A model generated the notes under the pieces. It searched no databases. It was given only the letters and a program-made list of their open reading frames with translations, and was not told the DNA's origin. From the NCBI GenBank assembly GCA_902385255.1, contig CABMEV010000012.1, positions 44,143 through 108,142 of the forward strand: a stretch of DNA of 64,000 nt, written 5' to 3'. The DNA is from Candidatus Tiddalikarchaeum anstoanum. GTDB lineage: Archaea; Nanobdellota; Nanobdellia; Tiddalikarchaeales; Tiddalikarchaeaceae. The position numbers were made by a program, and so were the translations under genes. Each line of letters begins with the position of its first letter. The stretch's first letter is position 1. This document shows, one piece after another, positions 25,629 to 35,003 of the stretch.

Positions 25629-25677
25629 AGTTAGATTGATTAAACATTTAAGTTCCGCCGCTTTTAGTAATATAATC

Positions 25678-26313
25678 ATGAATTTGTTTATACAGCATGC
25701 TTATGACAGGATTGCTGAAAAATATAATCAAAAGAGGTCCATATCCAGCGAACTAAACATGCTTAAAAAATTCATTGAATTACTGCCTGAAAAAGGCAGA
25801 GTGCTTGATGCCGGGTGCGGAGTCGGCCTGCATTCAAAATTTTTAACAGAACATGATTTCAAAGTTACAGGACTTGACATATCTAATAATATGCTGGACC
25901 TAGCCAGGAAAAATGCGCCAAAAGCAGAATTTATCAACAAAGATTTCACCAAATCATTTTTTAGAAAAGAATCATTTGACGGAATAGTTGCATTATTTTC
26001 ATTATTTAATATCCCGAGAAAAAACCACCAAAAAGTGCTGAACATGTTTAATAAGATATTAACACGGAAAGGTTTACTGTTAATCAGTTTTGGATGCAGA
26101 ATAGGCGAATGTATTGTTGACTTCCTTGGCACTAAGATGTTTTTCAGCAATAACAGTTATGATGAATCAGAAAAAATATTATCCAACGCTGGATTTGAAA
26201 AAGTAGCGGAGAAATTAATTACTTCCACTATTTCTGGAAGAAAAATAGAGCACCGCTTAATCATTGCTAGTAAAAAAAACACTGAGGGTCTTCGCCAAAT
26301 TCTGAACCGTTAA
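25678..26313 (+). CDS. Class I SAM-dependent methyltransferase
   Basis: 211 residues. It shows methyltransferase motif I VLDAGCGVGLHSKFL, the acidic residue in VTGLDISNNMLDLARKN, motif around EFINKDFTKSF and motif IV FDGIVALFSLFNIPR. The substrate is not evident. The ATG at 25678 is preferred over an upstream frame extension to 25636. Its 3' end overlaps the convergent radical SAM gene by 47 bases; it could serve the peptide cluster (for example methylating the product), but opposite orientation weakens that idea. Confidence 0.85.
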   Translation: MNLFIQHAYDRIAEKYNQKRSISSELNMLKKFIELLPEKGRVLDAGCGVGLHSKFLTEHDFKVTGLDISNNMLDLARKNAPKAEFINKDFTKSFFRKESFDGIVALFSLFNIPRKNHQKVLNMFNKILTRKGLLLISFGCRIGECIVDFLGTKMFFSNNSYDESEKILSNAGFEKVAEKLITSTISGRKIEHRLIIASKKNTEGLRQILNR

Positions 26314-27358
26314 CTGATTTTGCTACCGCACGGCATCCGAGACATTTCTTAAAATCCCTGCATTTTCCGCATCTCCCCTCAAAATTTTCACTTCTTCTAA
26401 AATTCCTCAAATATTCTGAATTCCATATACTAATCAAAGATTTATTTCTTATAGTATCAATTACTAAATTAGTCCTCCTGCAAGGCATAACATCACCATT
26501 TTCACAGATACATATGCCTTTTAGACCAATACAGCAGCCATAACTGTCACTTATCATTTTCCTCCATAAAGGGTCGCAGCTGTTTACTGCAATATTATTT
26601 CTATACTTAACACTTAACGATTTTATATAGTCATAAAATTTGGAGAGTTCAAGTTTTGTTAATAATTCTTTGCTTAACCTAGTCCCTTTTCCAGTGGGGA
26701 CTAATCTGTCGAAAGATAATTGAGTTACGTTATGCGAAATGCAGTGTTTTACCAAGGGTTCAAAATCTTTAATGTTTAACCTGCTTATAGTCATCATAAC
26801 AGTAGCATCAAGGCAAGCATTTACACAATTATCTATACCTTCCGTTGCTCTCTTAAAAGAACCAAGTCCCCTGATATTATCATTCGTTTCTTCCATACCT
26901 TCAAGACTGACCTGAACAAGCTGAGTTCCAGATTCTAATAACTTTCTGGCAACTGATTTATCAATGAGAGTGCCATTTGTAAGAACCATAGTGTACATCC
27001 CTAGTTCATCAGCACGGGCAATATAGTCATAGATATTATTGTCAAGCAAAGGTTCTCCTCCTGTGAAATATATCATGCCTTTCTGCTTGGTTTTTTTGAG
27101 AAAACGGTTATAATTATCTATTATTTTGAATATTTCATTCTTAGTAAGAAGTCCTTTTTTATCTTTTTTTGAATAATAACAATGTTTGCAATTTAAATTG
27201 CATTTGTTTGTGATATGAAGCTGCAGGAAGAAAGGATTCATCCATTCTTTTGAAGAGTACAGTAATCGTTTAAGCTCATGCAGCGCTTCATGAACAGGTT
27301 CACCCTGTTTTTTAAGCAGATTCAAACTTTTAATAGCAGTATATAGTTTAGAAGCCAA
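26267..27358 (-). CDS. Radical SAM / SPASM peptide maturase
   Basis: 363 residues. The radical SAM cluster motif is C53NLNC57KHC60, followed by FTGGEPLLD for SAM binding. The C-terminal SPASM region has many Cys for auxiliary Fe-S clusters (CCIGLKGICICENGDVMPC, then CGKCRDFKKCLGC). Such enzymes install thioether or C-C links in ribosomal peptides, or activate enzymes. The short N-terminal region before the cluster (residues about 7-33) closely resembles the C-terminal half of the 55-residue peptide encoded 21 bases upstream. The start is TTG with a GGTG about ten bases before it. It is the last gene of the peptide cluster. Confidence 0.93.
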   Translation of the reverse strand: MASKLYTAIKSLNLLKKQGEPVHEALHELKRLLYSSKEWMNPFFLQLHITNKCNLNCKHCYYSKKDKKGLLTKNEIFKIIDNYNRFLKKTKQKGMIYFTGGEPLLDNNIYDYIARADELGMYTMVLTNGTLIDKSVARKLLESGTQLVQVSLEGMEETNDNIRGLGSFKRATEGIDNCVNACLDATVMMTISRLNIKDFEPLVKHCISHNVTQLSFDRLVPTGKGTRLSKELLTKLELSKFYDYIKSLSVKYRNNIAVNSCDPLWRKMISDSYGCCIGLKGICICENGDVMPCRRTNLVIDTIRNKSLISIWNSEYLRNFRRSENFEGRCGKCRDFKKCLGCRAVAKSVNGSEFGEDPQCFFY

Positions 27359-27379
27359 TAGTCACACCAATTGATAATT

Positions 27380-27547
27380 TTAACTCTCACCTGTGATTTT
27401 TTTTAAAATGTCTAGTGCAGCATCAACTGGTTTTCCTAACGCTTTTAACGCATTAAGCGTAGTGAGTGCTCTTTGTGTTTGCGGCTTCTTTTTTGGTGCA
27501 GGCGCTGGTTCTCCGCATCCGCATCCACAACCTCCACCGCTAGTCAT
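27380..27547 (-). CDS. Candidate RiPP precursor: 55-residue Gly/Cys peptide
   Basis: Starts MTSGGGCGCGCGEPAPAP with three Cys alternating with Gly, then a Lys/Pro linker (KKKPQTQ) and a helical half. That half contains LNALKALGKPVDAALDILKK, which matches the maturase N-terminus in the pattern LNxLKxxGxPVxxALxxLK (about 12 of 27 positions identical). The modified core is probably N-terminal and the recognition helix C-terminal, the reverse of most leader-core peptides (inference). It sits between the ABC exporter and the radical SAM gene and has its own TATA box. The Cys residues are the obvious targets for thioether formation or metal binding. Confidence 0.82.
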   Translation of the reverse strand: MTSGGGCGCGCGEPAPAPKKKPQTQRALTTLNALKALGKPVDAALDILKKITGES

Positions 27548-27566
27548 AACGTAATGAAACTCTTCG

Positions 27567-27577
27567 TATAATATAAA
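27567..27577 (-). promoter_or_regulatory. TATA box of the precursor peptide gene
   Basis: On the minus strand TTTATATTATA is centred 25 bases before the ATG at 27547, in the short gap after the ABC transporter stop. This gives the peptide its own leaderless transcript, consistent with a need for more precursor than enzyme. Confidence 0.6.
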
Positions 27578-27582
27578 CTTTA

Positions 27583-29337
27583 TTAATTCCTTTTTGCATT
27601 TTTTGAATAATCAGAACCTTTTAAATACAAATTGTAAAATTTGAAAAAAGCGCCTTTTTTCTTGAGTAGTTCAGAAAAATTTCCATCTTCAAGTATGGTA
27701 TTGTTCTCCAGTACTAAAACCCTGTCGACGTTTTTAATCGTTGAAATCTTGTGAGCTATGATTATAACAGTTCTGTATTTCATAAGCTGCTTTAACGCAT
27801 CCTGAATCTTTTTTTCAGATGCTGAGTCCACTGAAGATGTAGCTTCATCAAAAATTATTATCTTAGGGTTGTGCAATAAAACTCGTGCTATGGCTATCCT
27901 TTGTTTCTCACCCTGCGAAATATTAGTTCCTCTTTCATCAAGACGTGTTTCGTAACCCTTCGGTAACTTAATAATAAAATTGTGTATTTGCGCAAGTTTT
28001 GCAGCATTGATAACCTGCTCCATAGATGCGTCGGTGCCGTATTTAATATTTTCTTTAATACTAAGGTTGAACATTACAGGTTCCTGAGTAACCACTCCGA
28101 TACAACACCTTAATGACTCCGCAGCTATTTTCTTAATATTAATCCCGTCAATTAGAATCTCTCCTTTTGTGACATCATAAAACCTGCATAACAGATTAGA
28201 AATCGTTGTCTTCCCGCCACCGCTTGGGCCTATTATGCCTATTTTTTCATCAGGCATGATAGTAAAGTTAACATTAGATAATACAGGTTTGCCAGAGTCA
28301 TACGAGAATGATACATTCCTGAACTCTATACAACCCTTAACATTTTTTATCTTGACAGCATCCTTGTCATCATTTATCAATGGTTTAGCGTCAAGGTATT
28401 CGAAAACACGTTTAACCATAACCATCTCATCCTGAATTTCAACATTAGAATTTACAATCTTGGATACAGGTTCAAAAACCAGTCCTATATAAGTATAAAG
28501 CGCGATTAATTCTCCAACAGTTATTTTTCCATCCAATACTTGGTAGCCACCATACCATAATATTAACAAAATAGGCAGAAAACTAATCAGTCCGCTTAGA
28601 GTATCTGAGAGGCTTTTTAAGAAGGTAATAATTAATGCATAATTAGATATATTTTTCCTTTTATTTTTATACTTTTCAATCTCGGTTTTTTCTTGGGAGA
28701 ATAATTTTATTGTCATAATTGATGTAATATTTTGCTGTAAAAAACTCAGTATATTATCTATTAAACCCTGAATCTTCTCCCTTCTTTTCTTAATTTTTTT
28801 CCCGAAAATTCTTTGTAAATATAAGTAAAAAGGTATTGATAAAAAAGAGAGCAGCGTTATACGCCAATTAATGTTTAAACAGATTATTAAGATTATCAAA
28901 CCTATTAAAAAATTCATCAAAACGTTATCAAAAAATATTATCAGCATTTTGTCTATGCTGAACACGTCAGTTTCAAACCGGGAAAGAACTTCCCCTGTCA
29001 TTTTTTTATTAAAGAACAATATGTCAAGTTTTTGTAAATGCTGAAATAACTCTGTGCTGATATCAAACACTATTCTCTCGGTTATTAATCTGGATACGTA
29101 ATCATAAACTATAGTCATCAGCGAGCTGATTAAAGTTATTATTACAAATAGACTCATTATAATATTAAGCAGCGAATAATTCTTGTTTGCCAATACATCA
29201 TCTATGAATATTTTTACTATGTAAGGCGCAGTTAATCCCAAAAAGGCAGAGAAGCAGGATATTATGAATAAGATTGTGAATAATCTCCAATGCGGGATGC
29301 CGTATTTTATAACCCTTATAATCTCTTTATTTTTCAA
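27583..29337 (-). CDS. ABC-type exporter (fused membrane and ATPase domains)
   Basis: 584 residues. The N-terminal 310 residues contain six membrane helices of the type I exporter fold. The ATPase domain has Walker A IGPSGGGKTT (about residues 370-378), signature NISQGEKQRIAIAR, Walker B IIIFDEATSSVD and the H-loop IIAHKIST. There is no N-terminal C39 peptidase, so any cleavage of the exported peptide would need another protease. Its start overlaps the CxxCxxCC gene by 11 bases and its stop lies 35 bases before the precursor gene, so export of the modified peptide is the likely job. Confidence 0.93.
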   Translation of the reverse strand: MKNKEIIRVIKYGIPHWRLFTILFIISCFSAFLGLTAPYIVKIFIDDVLANKNYSLLNIIMSLFVIITLISSLMTIVYDYVSRLITERIVFDISTELFQHLQKLDILFFNKKMTGEVLSRFETDVFSIDKMLIIFFDNVLMNFLIGLIILIICLNINWRITLLSFLSIPFYLYLQRIFGKKIKKRREKIQGLIDNILSFLQQNITSIMTIKLFSQEKTEIEKYKNKRKNISNYALIITFLKSLSDTLSGLISFLPILLILWYGGYQVLDGKITVGELIALYTYIGLVFEPVSKIVNSNVEIQDEMVMVKRVFEYLDAKPLINDDKDAVKIKNVKGCIEFRNVSFSYDSGKPVLSNVNFTIMPDEKIGIIGPSGGGKTTISNLLCRFYDVTKGEILIDGINIKKIAAESLRCCIGVVTQEPVMFNLSIKENIKYGTDASMEQVINAAKLAQIHNFIIKLPKGYETRLDERGTNISQGEKQRIAIARVLLHNPKIIIFDEATSSVDSASEKKIQDALKQLMKYRTVIIIAHKISTIKNVDRVLVLENNTILEDGNFSELLKKKGAFFKFYNLYLKGSDYSKNAKRN

Positions 29338-29707
29338 AACTCAGACCTTCTTCTTCTGCATATTTGAATAATTGTTTAAGCACCGGGCAATAATTTTTTT
29401 CTATCTTAAGTATGTCACTGCCCCAGGTAAAGCATTGAATGGGGTATGTTTTGCACGTGTTAGGTCTGAATCTTTTATGATTCCTGCAGTAATATTTTCC
29501 TTTTTTATATTCAAGCTTTGAGCAGGGTATGTCAAAGAGTATTCTATAAACATTTTTTTTAAATTTTTTAACGGTTATTTTATCTGTTTTTAAGTAAGAT
29601 AACCTGACTGCGTAATCTTTATCTTTAGTGTATATCCAAAATTGTTTGCAGCACTTTCCGCACTTTTGACAAACATCAGAATTAATATAAGTATTTGTAC
29701 TGTTCAC
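29327..29707 (-). CDS. YkgJ-type CxxCxxCC cluster protein
   Basis: 126 residues with the zinc/iron-chelating YkgJ (UPF0153) pattern: VCQKCGKCCKQFW near the N-terminus, then CSKLEYKKGKYYCRNH, CKTYPIQCF and a final NYCPVL. Proteins of this family bind a metal or Fe-S cluster. As first gene of the peptide cluster it may be a second modifying or cluster-supplying component of the radical SAM system (inference). It is divergent from the pilin-like surface gene at 29783. Confidence 0.85.
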   Translation of the reverse strand: MNSTNTYINSDVCQKCGKCCKQFWIYTKDKDYAVRLSYLKTDKITVKKFKKNVYRILFDIPCSKLEYKKGKYYCRNHKRFRPNTCKTYPIQCFTWGSDILKIEKNYCPVLKQLFKYAEEEGLSFEK

Positions 29708-29782
29708 ATTAATAAAATATCTTTTTTTAATTTAATAAACCTTTTAGAAAATGTTTTTATATTATCCACATATTCAAATTAC

Positions 29783-31975
29783 ATGCGTAAAGCTATTACT
29801 CCTATTATTGCAACCATTCTTCTCATATTAATAACAATTATTACTGCAAGTGCTGCTTTCGTCTGGATTTCTAGTGTTCAGACCAGTCTGGAGGAGAGTG
29901 CTGGCGGTGCAATTCTTGGGAGTTTGGGCGGTTGTTCTCGCGTTAGCCTAATTAGTATGCGCGGCGACCGAGTAATAGTCCAGAATACGGGCTGCGATGA
30001 TATTAGCAATATTACTCTCTTAATTGATAATATCCTGACAAGTTATGACTTGTCTGCTCCATTGTCCCCAGGTAACAGTGCAATTATTAGTTTCTCAAAC
30101 TTATTGGTCGGAGAAGATCACTGCGTCAAGGTATTATTATCTAATGGCGGAGAGAGCCAGTTATGCAGCAGCGCAAGCAGGAACACGTTGGATGCAGGAT
30201 ACGGCTACGGATGCCTAAACAGTTCTGAATGCGGAAGCGGCGAATCTTGCTGCAGCCACGTATGCTTTAACCCCTGCAACAATGACACTGAGTGCGGAAT
30301 CGGATTTACATGCATAAACCCAGGCGGTTGCAATGCCCAATGCCAAGCAATAAGCGAGTGCACTAATAACAGCGAATGCAATGACAGCAATCCTTGTACT
30401 AATAATATATGCAGCACTGGAAGCTGCACTTATCCAGCTTTAACTCCTAACGGGCAATACACAGGATGCAATTCAATAAATTATGCATGCATGAGCGGGA
30501 CTTGCACAAATACTTGCGGTGATGCTACTTGCCAATCTTGGGAGAATGTCTCTATATGCTTATCTGACTGCGGATCAAATTGTCTTGAAACACAAGGGTC
30601 TTGTACAGGCAAGGGTGTTTGGTTTACCGGCGGAGTGAACAGCATCAATAATAATTACTGCGCATGCTGCGGCGATGACGCACTTAATGATATTTTTTAT
30701 AACGCGACAACTTCCTGCAGTTACGGGGGTATAATATATGATAGTGACTCCATAGCCATACAGGATAAGTATGGAAATAACATTAACCACTCGAGCGGCA
30801 GCGGCGTTTGCGAATTGAAGAATAATACTTGGATGACAAGCAACGGCAGTTTCACACTAACTAAGAATTATATTGTAGGGTTATGGCCTCAGGATTTAGC
30901 TGTCGGGGATTTTAACAAAGATGGTTTTCTTGATTATGTTTTCTCAGATAGTGCTGGAAACATAAGTGTATTATTAAATGATGGAAGCGGCGATTTTGGT
31001 GTTGAGGCAAACTATACTGCTAACACTACCCCTTGGAGTGTGGAAGTTGGCGACGTTAATAAAGATTCTAATCTTGATATTGTAGTAACTGACTTGGTGG
31101 GAAATTACGTAACTGTATTTTTAAACGACGGGAGCGGACATTTTACGAAAGAAGGGGATTTCTCAACCGGACAAATGCCTTGGGATGTTAGTGCGGGTGA
31201 TTTTAATAGGGATTCCTGGCTGGAACTTGCAGTTGCCAACTTCAATGAGAGTAAAATATCTATTTTAACCAACGGACATGACGGAACATTCACTCTTAGT
31301 GATAATTATATGGTAAACGAGTACCCTTACACAATTAGTACGGAAGATTTCAATAATGACGGCTGGCCTGACCTGGCAGTTACTTCAGCCACATCCAATT
31401 ATGTAAGTGTCTTGCTTAATTATGGGAATGGGATTTTTGCACCAAAAATAGATTATTTCTCGGGCAACACATCTAACCAAGTTGGTGGAGCAGATTTCAA
31501 TAATGACGGCTGGCCTGACCTAGCAGTGGATTATTATAATGATATAGAAAATTTTGCCTCAGTTAATGTTTTATTCAACAATCAGGATGGCAGTTTCACA
31601 AGCAATGCCAATTACAGCGTTGGAATATACCCTGAGGGCATAAGTGTAGGCGATTATAACAATGATAACTGGCTTGACATTATAATAGCAAGTTATAACG
31701 AGAGTATAATAAGTGTATTAATGAATAATCAGGATGGGACTTTTAACTTAAATGCCAATTACACTGTTGGAACAAATCCTTGGGATACAATTATAGGGGA
31801 TTTTAATAATAAAGGAGGCTTGGACATACTTGTATTAAACAATAATAATACTGTTTCTTTAATATCTAATATAGGTATATCCGGAACCGGCGGGCCTTGC
31901 TGCGAAGTTGGCGACACATTCAATAATGCTACGCATTCCTGCTGTAATGGAGTATTCAAAAGCGGCAGCTGCTAA
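29783..31975 (+). CDS. Pilin-signal surface protein with Cys-rich block and FG-GAP repeats
   Basis: 730 residues. The N-terminus MRKAITPIIATILLILITII is a classical archaeal pilin-type signal/anchor, followed by a small pilin-like domain (SLGGCSRVSLISMRGD). A Cys-rich block (about residues 135-270) includes CSNNSECNDSNPCTN-like repeats and the CQSWEN module shared with the first gene of the window. The rest holds about seven FG-GAP/VCBS repeats (GDFNKDGFLDYV, GDVNKDSNLDIV, EDFNNDGWPDLA and others), i.e. a probable propeller. The ATG at 29783 is chosen because the signal starts there. A pilus-tip or surface adhesin is likely. Confidence 0.85.
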   Translation: MRKAITPIIATILLILITIITASAAFVWISSVQTSLEESAGGAILGSLGGCSRVSLISMRGDRVIVQNTGCDDISNITLLIDNILTSYDLSAPLSPGNSAIISFSNLLVGEDHCVKVLLSNGGESQLCSSASRNTLDAGYGYGCLNSSECGSGESCCSHVCFNPCNNDTECGIGFTCINPGGCNAQCQAISECTNNSECNDSNPCTNNICSTGSCTYPALTPNGQYTGCNSINYACMSGTCTNTCGDATCQSWENVSICLSDCGSNCLETQGSCTGKGVWFTGGVNSINNNYCACCGDDALNDIFYNATTSCSYGGIIYDSDSIAIQDKYGNNINHSSGSGVCELKNNTWMTSNGSFTLTKNYIVGLWPQDLAVGDFNKDGFLDYVFSDSAGNISVLLNDGSGDFGVEANYTANTTPWSVEVGDVNKDSNLDIVVTDLVGNYVTVFLNDGSGHFTKEGDFSTGQMPWDVSAGDFNRDSWLELAVANFNESKISILTNGHDGTFTLSDNYMVNEYPYTISTEDFNNDGWPDLAVTSATSNYVSVLLNYGNGIFAPKIDYFSGNTSNQVGGADFNNDGWPDLAVDYYNDIENFASVNVLFNNQDGSFTSNANYSVGIYPEGISVGDYNNDNWLDIIIASYNESIISVLMNNQDGTFNLNANYTVGTNPWDTIIGDFNNKGGLDILVLNNNNTVSLISNIGISGTGGPCCEVGDTFNNATHSCCNGVFKSGSC

Positions 31976-32519: not shown

Positions 32520-35003
32520 ATGCGAAAAGCTCAATCATCTTTAGAATCTTTATTATCTTATAGCTGGGTAGTAATAATATTAGTCGTAGTTGGAGTAGTA
32601 TTTTACGGAATAGGCGTGTTTAATCCAAAATACGACGTTAGCGGCTTAACAGAGAAAAGTTTTCAAAACTTGGAAATAGGTGTAGTAGACCACGGACTTA
32701 CCGCCACAGGGGAATGGACTCTTGAACTGATAAATAAAGGACCGAAAGATAGGATTATTACAAGCATTATATTGTCAGATAATAATATTGCACAAAATTA
32801 TACATTCAACACTCACATGTCATCATCTCAAAGCATTTTTCTAACTAAGACAGACCCGTTACTGACAGGGGTGGCTGGCAACGTTTATGATTTTAACTTA
32901 TCCATCTCTTACTTAAGTGAAACCGGAATAAGCCACCAAGTTTTTGGAACATTTACAGGATACTACACTGCCGGAAACGTGACGCTTGACACGACACCTC
33001 CAATAATAAGCAGTGTTATTAATATTTCAACCACTAACACAACCACGTATATAAATTGGCTTACTGACGAATCGAGTAATTCTTCAATCTTTTATGATAC
33101 TAATCCTCTACTTTTAACAAACAATGTTTATGATTCGAATTTCTTAACTAATCACTCGTTATTTTTATCAGGATTATTAACGAATACAAACTATTATTAC
33201 AATGTAACAAGCTGTGACCCAAGCGGAAACTGCGCAACCAGCGGATTATACAATTTTACTACACTAACTAACCCTGACACTACTCCTCCAATTATTACGA
33301 TTGTCAGTCCTGTAAATATTGTTTACCCATCAAATATTATTAACCTCAAAGTTTTTGCAAATGAGACTATAAGCAATTGGTGGTATAGTCTTAACGGAGG
33401 CTCTAATCTTTTCTTCACCCCGAATACGACAATTATTGCTTTAGAAGGAAATAATTCATTAATAGTGCTTGCAAATGATACAAGCAATAATATAAATTAT
33501 TCAAGCGTTTCATTCACGGTTGACACTACTCCTCCCCTTATTTCTTTAATAAATCCTGTTAATACTACTTATTCTAACAAGACACAATCAGTAAATATTT
33601 CAAGCTCCGAAGCTGCTAATATTTGGTATAATTGGAACGGCACTAATATTACATATACTAATCCTATTTTTGTCCTCTTTAACGAAGGCATTAACAGTAT
33701 AACTGCTTACGCGAATGACAGTGTTGGCAATCTAAACAGTACGAAAACATATTTCACAATTGACACGACTCCGCCTATAATAAGCGGGGTTACAAACATG
33801 TCGACTACTAATATCAGCACTCTCATTACATGGCTTACTAATGAACAAGGCAATTCATCAGTAAAGTATGGCATTAACTTAAGCATGATGGGAGGAGTTG
33901 TTTCAAACTCCAGCTTTGTATTAAACCGTTCACTATTAATATCAGGGCTGTCTAGCAACACAACTTATTACTACAACGTGACAAGCTGTGACATATTAGG
34001 AAACTGCGCAATGAAAGGCTCATACAACTTCACAACATTAAGAAACGTACTTAATTGTTGGGGAATAGGAGGATTATGCAACAGTTCATGCAACTTTGCA
34101 TCCCTTGGAATTGTTAATTATTACAATAATCCGGGATGCTCAGGTAGCTGTAACATTTCAGGAACATTTTATGTGCCAACAGGAAGTTGCAGCATAAACG
34201 GCAGCGGGAGTTGTTACTTAATGAGTTCGCCAATAAGCAGGAACACTACTTGCACACAAGGCGCCGTTTGCAACAGTTCATGCACAGGGACTGGAACTGT
34301 TTGCTCTAACTTAACAACAGGCAATTGCACACTATGCGGATGCAACTTAACAACACTATCGAATAATACAAATAAATGGAATGAAACCTTTGCAAGCTTT
34401 ACCGACTGGGCGACGTGGACAACTGACGGCAACGGAATATCAAACGTGACCGACGCAACTAATTGCATTAACGATACTAATAATAAGTGCATGCATGCCC
34501 GCGGAGGAACAACATCTTACACAATAACAAAACAGTCAAACATTAACTTAAGCAACTGCAATGCGGGAACTGCTAGTTTGAATATTTCACACGTTAAAAG
34601 AGCAGGATCATTGACAGGAACAGATTGTATCTATATTGCATTATCAAACAATTCAGGAAGCACGTGGAGCACTAATAACCAGGTATTCTGCGGCGGCATA
34701 GCTGGAGTAATTTCATATAATCTTTCACTGCCTAATTCTTATTTAACAAGCGGATTCAGAATTAGGGTTACAAAGAACGGGTTCACAGTTGGAGGCAGAA
34801 ATGCATGGCTTGACGGATTCACTGTCTCATGCAGTGTTAATTCAACAATATGCAACGGCACATGCAATAACTGCACATCTTACACTAATAGCTCGGCTTG
34901 CGGTTCATGCGGATGCAATTGGACAGCTAATTCTTGGAACTGGAATACAGGGAGTTTAACAGCAGGATACAACGCATATACAACTTGTACTTGGACTTCA
35001 TAA
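32520..35003 (+). CDS. Pilin-signal surface protein with FN3/Ig-like domains
   Basis: 827 residues. Class III signal peptide: basic start, cleavage-type motif QSSLESLLSY and a hydrophobic stretch (VVIILVVVGVVFYGIGVF). Two fibronectin-III-like modules (each with DTTPPIIS at the front and TNTNYYYNVTSCD or SNTTYYYNVTSCD near the end) flank Ig-like modules containing FTVDTTPPL. A Cys-rich block (about residues 510-620) and a jelly-roll-like C-terminal domain (SGFRIRVTKNGFTVGGR) follow. A cell-surface adhesin assembled like a pilin is likely. The two FN3 modules are near repeats of each other. It precedes a second class III protein at 35037. Confidence 0.85.
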   Translation: MRKAQSSLESLLSYSWVVIILVVVGVVFYGIGVFNPKYDVSGLTEKSFQNLEIGVVDHGLTATGEWTLELINKGPKDRIITSIILSDNNIAQNYTFNTHMSSSQSIFLTKTDPLLTGVAGNVYDFNLSISYLSETGISHQVFGTFTGYYTAGNVTLDTTPPIISSVINISTTNTTTYINWLTDESSNSSIFYDTNPLLLTNNVYDSNFLTNHSLFLSGLLTNTNYYYNVTSCDPSGNCATSGLYNFTTLTNPDTTPPIITIVSPVNIVYPSNIINLKVFANETISNWWYSLNGGSNLFFTPNTTIIALEGNNSLIVLANDTSNNINYSSVSFTVDTTPPLISLINPVNTTYSNKTQSVNISSSEAANIWYNWNGTNITYTNPIFVLFNEGINSITAYANDSVGNLNSTKTYFTIDTTPPIISGVTNMSTTNISTLITWLTNEQGNSSVKYGINLSMMGGVVSNSSFVLNRSLLISGLSSNTTYYYNVTSCDILGNCAMKGSYNFTTLRNVLNCWGIGGLCNSSCNFASLGIVNYYNNPGCSGSCNISGTFYVPTGSCSINGSGSCYLMSSPISRNTTCTQGAVCNSSCTGTGTVCSNLTTGNCTLCGCNLTTLSNNTNKWNETFASFTDWATWTTDGNGISNVTDATNCINDTNNKCMHARGGTTSYTITKQSNINLSNCNAGTASLNISHVKRAGSLTGTDCIYIALSNNSGSTWSTNNQVFCGGIAGVISYNLSLPNSYLTSGFRIRVTKNGFTVGGRNAWLDGFTVSCSVNSTICNGTCNNCTSYTNSSACGSCGCNWTANSWNWNTGSLTAGYNAYTTCTWTS

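What the first reader, a model, noticed from the sequence alone, without database searches (positions are those of the whole stretch)
26267..29707. Undescribed RiPP-type cluster: Gly/Cys peptide, radical SAM maturase, exporter and CxxCxxCC protein
Seen: four close minus-strand genes, including a 55-residue peptide starting MTSGGGCGCGCGEP, a SPASM radical SAM enzyme with C53/C57/C60, a complete ABC exporter without protease domain, and a YkgJ-type protein. Known: SPASM enzymes modify Cys-containing peptides that are then exported. Inference: the alternating Cys/Gly core is thioether-linked or metal-binding, and the product is secreted, perhaps against neighbours or as a metal ligand. I know of no described family with this core together with YkgJ, and such systems in DPANN-like genomes would be new to me.
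Basis: partly seen in the sequence, partly recalled or inferred. Interest (0 to 1): 0.95.

Follow-up and report, generated by a model that had tools for sequence, protein, structure and literature searches.

The report
Twin-hairpin cysteine-glycine peptide maturation operon
A small-genomed archaeon carries, side by side, genes for a short peptide that begins with alternating glycines and cysteines, a radical enzyme predicted to modify it, a transporter predicted to export it and a cysteine-cluster protein; the peptide's tail and the enzyme's head carry a similar sequence motif that likely brings the two together, which would be a new way to recruit a peptide for modification.

Summary
In detail: four same-strand genes, gaps of 35 bases or less, encode a CxxCxxCC protein, an exporter without peptidase domain, a 55-residue peptide (MTSGGGCGCGCGEP...) and a radical SAM/SPASM enzyme. 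The RiPP reading is supported by relatives, not by chemistry. The enzyme's closest relatives (about 50% identical; Asgard where named) sit beside membrane proteins ending in Cys/Gly tails; a Cys/Gly/Ser tail ends directly upstream in 47 of 68 testable loci, against 4 of 697 other ORFs. In the window's class, 9 of 20 SPASM genes (window included) follow a short Cys-rich ORF; control 5 of 157. A deltaproteobacterial relative has a 50-residue peptide ending GCGGGCGCGCGSVL with PqqD, peptidase and ABC genes. New here: the peptide's C-terminal helical hairpin recurs at the enzyme's N-terminus (0 of 20,000 shuffles reach the score) and in none of 119 homologues compared. I infer hairpin-mediated recruitment of a core-first substrate. 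Against it: no peptide homologue found; (GC)n ORFs without a SPASM in one related genus; no RRE or peptidase among the genes scanned; the bond made is unknown. New variant of a known kind, not a described family.

The parts
29327..29707 (-). CxxCxxCC (YkgJ-type) protein, 126 aa, first gene of the operon
   Evidence: PF03692 28.5 bits, gathering score 23; only a chance-level solved match, E 0.29
27583..29337 (-). ABC exporter, fused membrane and ATPase domains, 584 aa, no peptidase domain; predicted to export the peptide
   Evidence: PF00664 158.4 bits, PF00005 109.1 bits; overlaps the gene before it by 11 bases; nearest proteins 45-46% identical, unnamed (listed only to E 1e-150)
27567..27577 (-). 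TATA-like TTTATATTATA, centre 25 bases before the peptide's ATG; may give the peptide its own leaderless transcript (inference; the spacing rule is recalled)
   Evidence: sequence
27380..27547 (-). 55-aa Cys/Gly peptide, predicted precursor
   Evidence: ORF; no family; the search of 5.8 billion proteins returned only itself
27512..27538 (-). core GGGCGCGCG (residues 4-12), predicted to be the modified part
   Evidence: only match of the pattern in the genome; like tails of neighbours of related SPASM genes and the L096 peptide
27392..27484 (-). C-terminal helical hairpin of the peptide (residues 22-52)
   Evidence: AlphaFold2 single-sequence model, helices 22-37 and 39-52, pLDDT 72-88 by blocks of ten, pTM 0.34; similar to the enzyme's N-terminus
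26267..27358 (-). radical SAM/SPASM enzyme, 363 aa, predicted maturase
   Evidence: PF04055, PF13186; tree place; model mean pLDDT 88.2, best solved match SkfB, then SuiB, CteB, ChlB, anSME and PqqE
27257..27355 (-). N-terminal helical-hairpin extension of the enzyme (residues 2-34), like the peptide's tail
   Evidence: helices 2-18 and 23-34; SW score 54, 0 of 20,000 shuffles; best score 23 in the N-termini of 119 homologues, two of them N-terminally incomplete
27365..27368 (-). GGTG, possible ribosome-binding site six bases before the TTG start of the enzyme
   Evidence: sequence; archaeal motif recalled
27179..27202 (-). CNLNCKHC, ligands of the radical SAM cluster (C53, C57, C60)
   Evidence: nearly invariant in A1
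25636..26313 (+). class I methyltransferase, convergent with and overlapping the end of the enzyme gene; possible accessory, not counted as part of the operon
   Evidence: Methyltransf_25 65 bits, TehB 20.5 bits (cut-off 20.4); methyltransferase-like genes lie beside the peptide or SPASM gene in eight same-class loci (by reading), six of them scanned and all over the TehB cut-off

Best explanation
The four genes likely form a RiPP-type operon in which the radical SAM/SPASM enzyme is predicted to modify the N-terminal GGGCGCGCG stretch of the 55-residue peptide, which it would recruit through the helical hairpin whose sequence recurs at the peptide's tail and the enzyme's head, before the ABC exporter would secrete the product. 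Shown by the sequence and calls: the gene order, the core, the twin motif, the intact cluster cysteines, and that related enzymes sit beside Cys/Gly-rich tails or short Cys-rich ORFs. Inferred: that the peptide is the substrate; that the hairpins (themselves predicted) pair with each other, or compete for one docking site, in place of the usual leader-binding RRE; that the reaction is S-to-C-alpha thioether linking of Cys to neighbouring residues (the best guess, from the nearest solved folds SkfB and CteB, about one in three); that the product leaves through the exporter; and that the CxxCxxCC protein handles iron or another metal for the enzyme or product. The enzyme gene was likely obtained from, or shared with, an Asgard-type lineage whose enzyme would serve the Cys/Gly tail of a membrane protein; here the target would be a free peptide with the core first and the recognition part last.
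Against: No homologue of the peptide found, so no conservation test of core or hairpin; one genome only. The four same-family genomes have no match to the enzyme at E 1e-20. GGCGCGCG ORFs without a SPASM neighbour exist in seven genomes of genus g15 of the class. No peptidase and no PqqD/RRE domain in the four genes and five neighbours scanned (the rest of the genome was not scanned for them), so how a core-first precursor would be cut free is open. The Cys/Gly partners of close relatives are membrane proteins with C-terminal tails, not N-terminal cores, and 21 of 68 loci show no such tail. The enzyme scores far below every curated cut-off among the 25 best NCBIfam models shown; its best is a heme enzyme, AhbD. 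SuiB, CteB, ChlB, anSME and PqqE are tied in Z, and a fold does not give a reaction. Three other 45-residue windows reached the hairpin score (56-57), all in loci that the peptide or hairpin query had picked out of 93 genomes; elsewhere the best was 47. The peptide model's pTM is only 0.34.
Confidence: 0.55

Rival explanations
1. The peptide is an unmodified metal-binding peptide: its CGCGCG stretch binds a soft metal, the exporter or CxxCxxCC protein handles the metal, and the SPASM enzyme acts on something else.
For: Seven genomes of genus g15 hold GCGCGC ORFs with no SPASM gene seen nearby and are not among the 18 genomes with an enzyme relative at E 1e-30: a 78-81-residue protein M.MNN..CGCGCGN (one scanned, DUF5320 31.2 bits, cut-off 27) directly before a gene that is PadR-like in both copies scanned (L147, L149-L151, L153), and 22-25-residue ORFs rich in CG beside a CTP synthase gene (L146, L148 scanned; L152 by likeness). 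A CxxCxxCC protein in the operon suits metal handling.
Against: Here the peptide lies 21 bases before a SPASM gene whose relatives are paired with Cys/Gly sequences in most testable loci and nearly half in its class, and it shares a motif with that enzyme, which a bystander peptide would not need. No PadR-like domain in the nine window proteins scanned.
Confidence: 0.2
2. The 55-residue peptide is an adaptor or regulator of the enzyme, not its substrate: its hairpin binds the enzyme's N-terminus, and the true substrate is another protein encoded elsewhere, as the membrane-tail proteins may be for the relatives.
For: Shared hairpin; relatives' likely substrates are large membrane proteins.
Against: No gene with a CGGCGG-type tail was found in this genome with one DNA pattern: TGYGGNGGNTGYGGNGGN has no exact match and three one-mismatch matches, against two for the control; other tail spellings were not searched. 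The peptide itself carries the Cys/Gly stretch.
Confidence: 0.12
3. The enzyme makes a small molecule or cofactor (as AhbD or PqqE relatives do) and the four genes are neighbours without a shared pathway.
For: Best curated model is a heme enzyme (AhbD 162 bits, cut-off 500); none of those shown is above cut-off.
Against: Tight, partly overlapping same-strand genes; neighbour statistics of relatives; motif shared by peptide and enzyme.
Confidence: 0.08

Closest known systems
Sactipeptide, ranthipeptide and related maturases with solved structures (SkfB 6efn, CteB 5wgg/5why, SuiB 5v1s, ChlB 9gm3)
   Different: 17-22% identity; scores far below the curated cut-offs shown; no PqqD-like RRE seen in the genes scanned; helical hairpin in front of the core domain instead; core at the peptide's N-terminus
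ACGX system (NCBIfam TIGR04340)
   Same: second-best NCBIfam model (159.1 bits); Cys/Gly-rich precursor implied by the name
   Different: cut-off 400 bits not reached; the peptide has alternating G-C, no A-C-G unit
TIGR04222 / DUF2207 / TPM membrane proteins with C-terminal Cys tails beside SPASM genes (Asgard archaea, Nitrospirota, Clostridia and others)
   Same: partner of the enzyme's close and distant relatives; Cys/Gly-rich stretch
   Different: large membrane proteins with the tail last; the window's peptide is 55 aa, core first. PMC12452194 (passages read) proposes subsets of TIGR04222 proteins as substrates of MNIO enzymes; 'radical SAM' stands only in its reference list
Short Cys-rich ORF + SPASM + methyltransferase loci of the window's own class (L111, L114, L176-L179 and others)
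   Same: archaeal, same class, peptide directly before SPASM
   Different: enzyme 29-36% identical and in other clades; Cys mostly near the C-terminus (CxxCxxC); no exporter or CxxCxxCC gene noticed beside it
L096 cluster (deltaproteobacterial MAG)
   Same: free 50-aa peptide with GCGGGCGCGCG core near a SPASM of the same broad group
   Different: core last; PqqD, S24 peptidase, NTP_transf_5 and ABC ATPase genes; enzyme 31% to 33% identical

Membership tests
Radical SAM/SPASM enzymes | CxxxCxxC cluster motif and SPASM cysteines | tested here: met
   C53/C57/C60 nearly invariant, seven SPASM cysteines invariant in 24 rows; PF04055 and PF13186 above gathering score
RiPP cluster | short precursor gene beside a peptide-modifying enzyme gene | tested here: inconclusive
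   55-aa Cys/Gly ORF 21 bases before the enzyme; relatives paired likewise; that it is the substrate is not shown
RiPP cluster | post-translational modification of the peptide | not testable with these tools
   needs mass spectrometry
RiPP cluster | RRE (PqqD-like) or precursor peptidase in the cluster (common, not universal) | tested here: not met
   no such Pfam domain in the four genes or the five neighbours scanned; rest of the genome not scanned
ACGX system, TIGR04340 | enzyme above the curated cut-off | tested here: not met
   159.1 bits, cut-off 400
Sactipeptide / ranthipeptide maturases (NF045574 StsB, TIGR04403 SkfB, NF047865 PapB) | enzyme above the curated cut-off | tested here: not met
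   89, 73.6 and 78.8 bits against 625, 300 and 340
Sactipeptide / ranthipeptide maturases | thioether bond formation | not testable with these tools
   fold nearest to SkfB does not show the reaction
Asgard-type Cys/Gly-tail SPASM group (defined in this report) | place in the clade | tested here: met
   21-row clade, SH-aLRT 99, quick method, no bootstrap
Asgard-type Cys/Gly-tail SPASM group (defined in this report) | membrane protein with C-terminal Cys/Gly tail next to the enzyme | tested here: not met
   neighbour is the 55-aa peptide; no exact match of one CGGCGG DNA pattern in the genome
YkgJ / CxxCxxCC family PF03692 | match above gathering score | tested here: met
   28.5 bits against 23
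Peptidase-containing (C39) peptide exporters | N-terminal C39 peptidase domain | tested here: not met
   only PF00664 and PF00005 above gathering score

The most novel reading that the evidence does not exclude
A RiPP pathway in which maturase and substrate carry copies of the same helical hairpin and recognise each other through it, doing away with leader peptide and RRE: the enzyme came from a widespread, undescribed group that modifies Cys/Gly tails of membrane proteins from Asgard archaea to Clostridia, and by fusing a copy of the peptide's tail to its own front it was re-aimed at a free, exported Cys/Gly peptide in a DPANN archaeon.
Probability: 0.3. Interest if true: 0.82.

Novelty: new variant of a known kind. 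Interest (0 to 1): 0.64.

Why it matters
If right, it gives a natural, portable way of aiming a radical SAM enzyme at a target: put a short hairpin on both. That can be tested with two small genes and would be useful for peptide engineering. It also exposes a broader group of SPASM enzymes paired with Cys/Gly tails of membrane proteins (TIGR04222, DUF2207 or TPM where a family was found) across Asgard archaea and many bacteria. Nine held papers name TIGR04222 or DUF2207; the one read in passages makes no radical SAM link, the other eight were seen as listings only, and two further searches gave nothing on the pairing (titles and abstracts seen). Cys-peptide + SPASM + methyltransferase loci also turn up in archaea of the Woesearchaeota class; no held paper has the words Woesearchaeota, radical SAM and SPASM together. 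What such tails and peptides do in small-genomed archaea is open and directly testable.

Tried and rejected
Peptide homologue search in 5.8 billion proteins: one candidate, itself. Peptide against 93 relatives: nine foreign hits (E 0.07-0.54); the five plus-strand ones were read and look unrelated (L004 and L005 look like ribosomal protein S5 by eye); for the four minus-strand ones that script printed the wrong strand, so they were not judged. Search for a Cys/Gly-tail gene in the window's own genome: no exact match of one pattern. ABC exporter search: four proteins under the E 1e-150 that I set, itself included, no names. PADLOC: viperin models (best 79 bits) and ATPase models only, taken as general likeness, so no defence reading. 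Twin-hairpin profile in 93 genomes: 11 genomes with a match at E 0.1, nothing foreign below E 0.0039; the best foreign hit, L190, is a ribosomal stalk (60s acidic) protein N-terminus (PF00428) and L196 looks alike by eye ('LGKPV.EA'); that this N-terminus dimerises is recalled; too weak to build on. In the score control, three windows above 54 came from loci fetched by the peptide query (L010, L011) or the hairpin profile (L198), so they are not independent. Looser short-ORF control: 10 of 25 against 21 of 152 (it counted some non-SPASM ORFs as SPASM and a spurious ORF in L112), replaced by the stricter count. L112 has a Cys-rich frame (SGDCMTCNNCGSGDCNSCC) without a common start codon and was not counted; L172 has a 10-Cys ORF 750 bases upstream and was not counted. 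Of the 47 tail ORFs two are under 200 aa: L056, which is one of the short Cys-rich peptides, and L063, 83 aa, perhaps a piece. A role as toxin against neighbours was considered and left open: no immunity gene was looked for. Paper searches; papers of which passages were read: PMC12452194 and PMC12144867; all others seen only as search listings.
Full report
OBSERVATION. The window lies in a 1.16-Mb genome, 94% complete. Four minus-strand genes follow one another: CxxCxxCC protein 29327-29707, ABC exporter 27583-29337, peptide 27380-27547, rSAM/SPASM enzyme 26267-27358. Domain calls agree. The peptide matches no family, and the large protein search returned only itself. The repeated GGN TGY pattern is found once in the genome, inside this peptide; the reversed pattern is found 0 times.

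WHO THE ENZYME'S RELATIVES ARE. The best hits, 45-54% identical, are Asgard archaeal where a name is given. In a tree of 96 rows (18 of 114 distinct rows left out as near-duplicates or fragments) the window's enzyme falls in a 21-row clade with them, SH-aLRT 99 (quick method, no bootstrap). The four genomes of the window's own family have no match at E 1e-20; in the class 18 of 378 genomes, the window's own included, have a match at E 1e-30 or better, all but the own one only 29-36% identical. In 195 genomes of the phylum of G378 (a Lokiarchaeota genome), 4 have one at E 1e-60 or better. A patchy spread with the closest match in another phylum suggests transfer (inference).

WHAT THE RELATIVES SIT BESIDE. 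Of 72 loci found in GTDB genomes, 68 have enough sequence upstream; in 47 of them an ORF that ends directly upstream closes with a tail rich in Cys and Gly or Ser (for example SGGCGGGCGGCGG, CSSCSSCSSCGGCGGCGGCGG, CSSCSSCGGGGCGSGGSSSF), in 21 none does. Among 697 other ORFs of the same loci 4 have such a tail, two of them further proteins of the same kind. The loci are not independent: 21 of the 68 carry Ruminococcus or Clostridia labels (19 with a tail); without them it is 28 of 47. In 45 of the 47 the tail ORF has 253 residues or more; the other two are L056 (67 aa) and L063 (83 aa). Of ten tail proteins scanned with NCBIfam three pass the TIGR04222 cut-off of 43 bits (93.8, 91.2, 57), one scores 40, two score 17-18, and L039 has no match; with Pfam, DUF2207 is passed by L043 and L085 and TPM by L060, while L039, L044 and L046 pass nothing. 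Six of seven Asgard loci have such a tail gene; L108 is a fragment. A 2025 study proposes that subsets of TIGR04222 proteins with such tails are substrates of MNIO enzymes (PMC12452194, passages read); the words radical SAM occur only in its reference list.

THE WINDOW'S OWN CLASS. Upstream of 9 of 20 SPASM genes (the window included) lies a short ORF with clustered cysteines, against 5 of 157 other genes (L115 entered twice, once for each of its two SPASM genes). Examples end MECNTCKQCPGCGCMCNND (L111), YNCVSGCSNCVPCGSE (L114), NCYDCDSCNSCGSGDCNSCCEVVDD (L176 = L056). A methyltransferase-like gene is next to the SPASM or peptide gene in L111, L112, L114, L175, L176, L177, L178 and L179 (by reading); the six scanned all pass the TehB cut-off. 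The window has a methyltransferase gene too, but convergent (25636-26313). So a Cys-peptide plus SPASM is not rare in this class; the window's version is a separate one with an Asgard-type enzyme.

A BACTERIAL PARALLEL. L096, a deltaproteobacterial MAG, has a 50-residue ORF ending GCGGGCGCGCGSVL, then, about 640 bases on, a SPASM gene of the wider group, and downstream a 315-aa gene without a Pfam match, an S24-type peptidase, a PqqD, an NTP_transf_5 protein and an ABC ATPase. This is a RiPP-like set with the same kind of core, which speaks for the window's peptide being a precursor.

THE TWIN HAIRPIN. Residues 27-51 of the peptide (ALTTLNALKALGKPVDAALDILKKI) and 8-32 of the enzyme (AIKSLNLLKKQGEPVHEALHELKRL) align without gaps, score 54; none of 20,000 shuffled pairs reached it (maximum 46). 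Over 22 codons the identities by position are 10, 15 and 8, so silent sites have drifted while the residues stayed alike, which argues that the extension is translated, as from the TTG start. Of 1336 real ORF N-termini the enzyme's is the best match to the tail (next 42, in a locus fetched by the hairpin profile). Against all 45-residue windows of those ORFs (23,047), three others score 56-57, all from loci that the peptide query or hairpin profile had picked out of 93 genomes; the best elsewhere is 47. In the N-termini of 119 homologues the best score is 23; two of them, P0017 and P0021, are incomplete at the front. AlphaFold2 gives a helical hairpin for residues 2-34 of the enzyme (model mean pLDDT 88.2, first 40 residues 74-87 by blocks) and for 22-52 of the peptide (72-88 by blocks, pTM 0.34), with the core and the EPAPAPKKKPQ linker without structure.

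RIVALS. (GC)n ORFs without a SPASM neighbour exist in seven genomes of genus g15, some before a PadR-like gene, so such a stretch can be useful unmodified, presumably for metal. That is the strongest rival. The peptide as an adaptor, or an unrelated neighbourhood, are less likely for the reasons given in those fields.

KNOWN OR NEW. The enzyme is a radical SAM/SPASM protein by the tests made; it reaches the cut-off of none of the 25 best NCBIfam models shown. In print, archaeal RiPP clusters, DPANN and rSAM types included, are predicted in general terms (PMC12144867, passages). My ten paper searches (listed under Tried and rejected) showed no report of this peptide, of the Cys/Gly-tail pairing with SPASM, or of a maturase carrying its substrate's recognition motif; the library holds open-licence papers only and most were seen as listings. 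Hence: a new variant of a known kind.

Noticed in passing
L039-L041, L043-L050, L055, L057-L064 and others (47 of 68 loci): A broad pairing, not met in my paper searches, of SPASM enzymes with membrane proteins (TIGR04222, DUF2207 or TPM where a family was found) that end in Cys/Gly/Ser tails, from Asgard archaea to Clostridia, Nitrospirota, Elusimicrobiota and Verrucomicrobiota.
   Followed up: partly
L111, L113, L114, L175-L179 (same class as the window): Short Cys-rich ORF + SPASM loci in the Woesearchaeota class, most with a methyltransferase gene; L176 and a frame of L112 share CGSGDCNSCCE.
   Followed up: partly
L147, L149, L150, L151, L153: 78-81-residue DUF5320-like proteins (one scanned) starting M.MNN..CGCGCGN directly before a PadR-like gene that itself begins with RCRCGPFNV, in genus g15: possible metal-sensing pair.
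   Followed up: partly
L146, L148, L152: 22-25-residue ORFs ending CGCGCGCGCGCSD or CACGCGCGCGCS beside a CTP synthase gene in genus g15.
   Followed up: partly
L190, L196: The twin-hairpin profile's foreign matches include the N-terminus of a ribosomal stalk (60s acidic) protein (L190, PF00428) and a lookalike (L196); weak, E 0.004 and 0.07 per genome. That this N-terminus dimerises is recalled.
   Followed up: partly
L126 5173-6617: SPASM gene overlapping a CxxCxxCC-like gene, with what looks like a further radical SAM gene before them.
   Followed up: no
L104 9358-9675: 105-residue ORF with a possible double-glycine-like site (KKVFGGIRTQ) and a VCCLGCNCEEC stretch near a SPASM match and an ABC exporter 34.6% identical to the window's: a possible leader-type RiPP locus.
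   Followed up: no
window 29642-31975 and 32520-35003: Two large Cys-rich plus-strand ORFs (39 and 31 Cys) with pilin-like hydrophobic N-terminal stretches by eye; the first overlaps the start of the operon, so its true start is likely further in.
   Followed up: no
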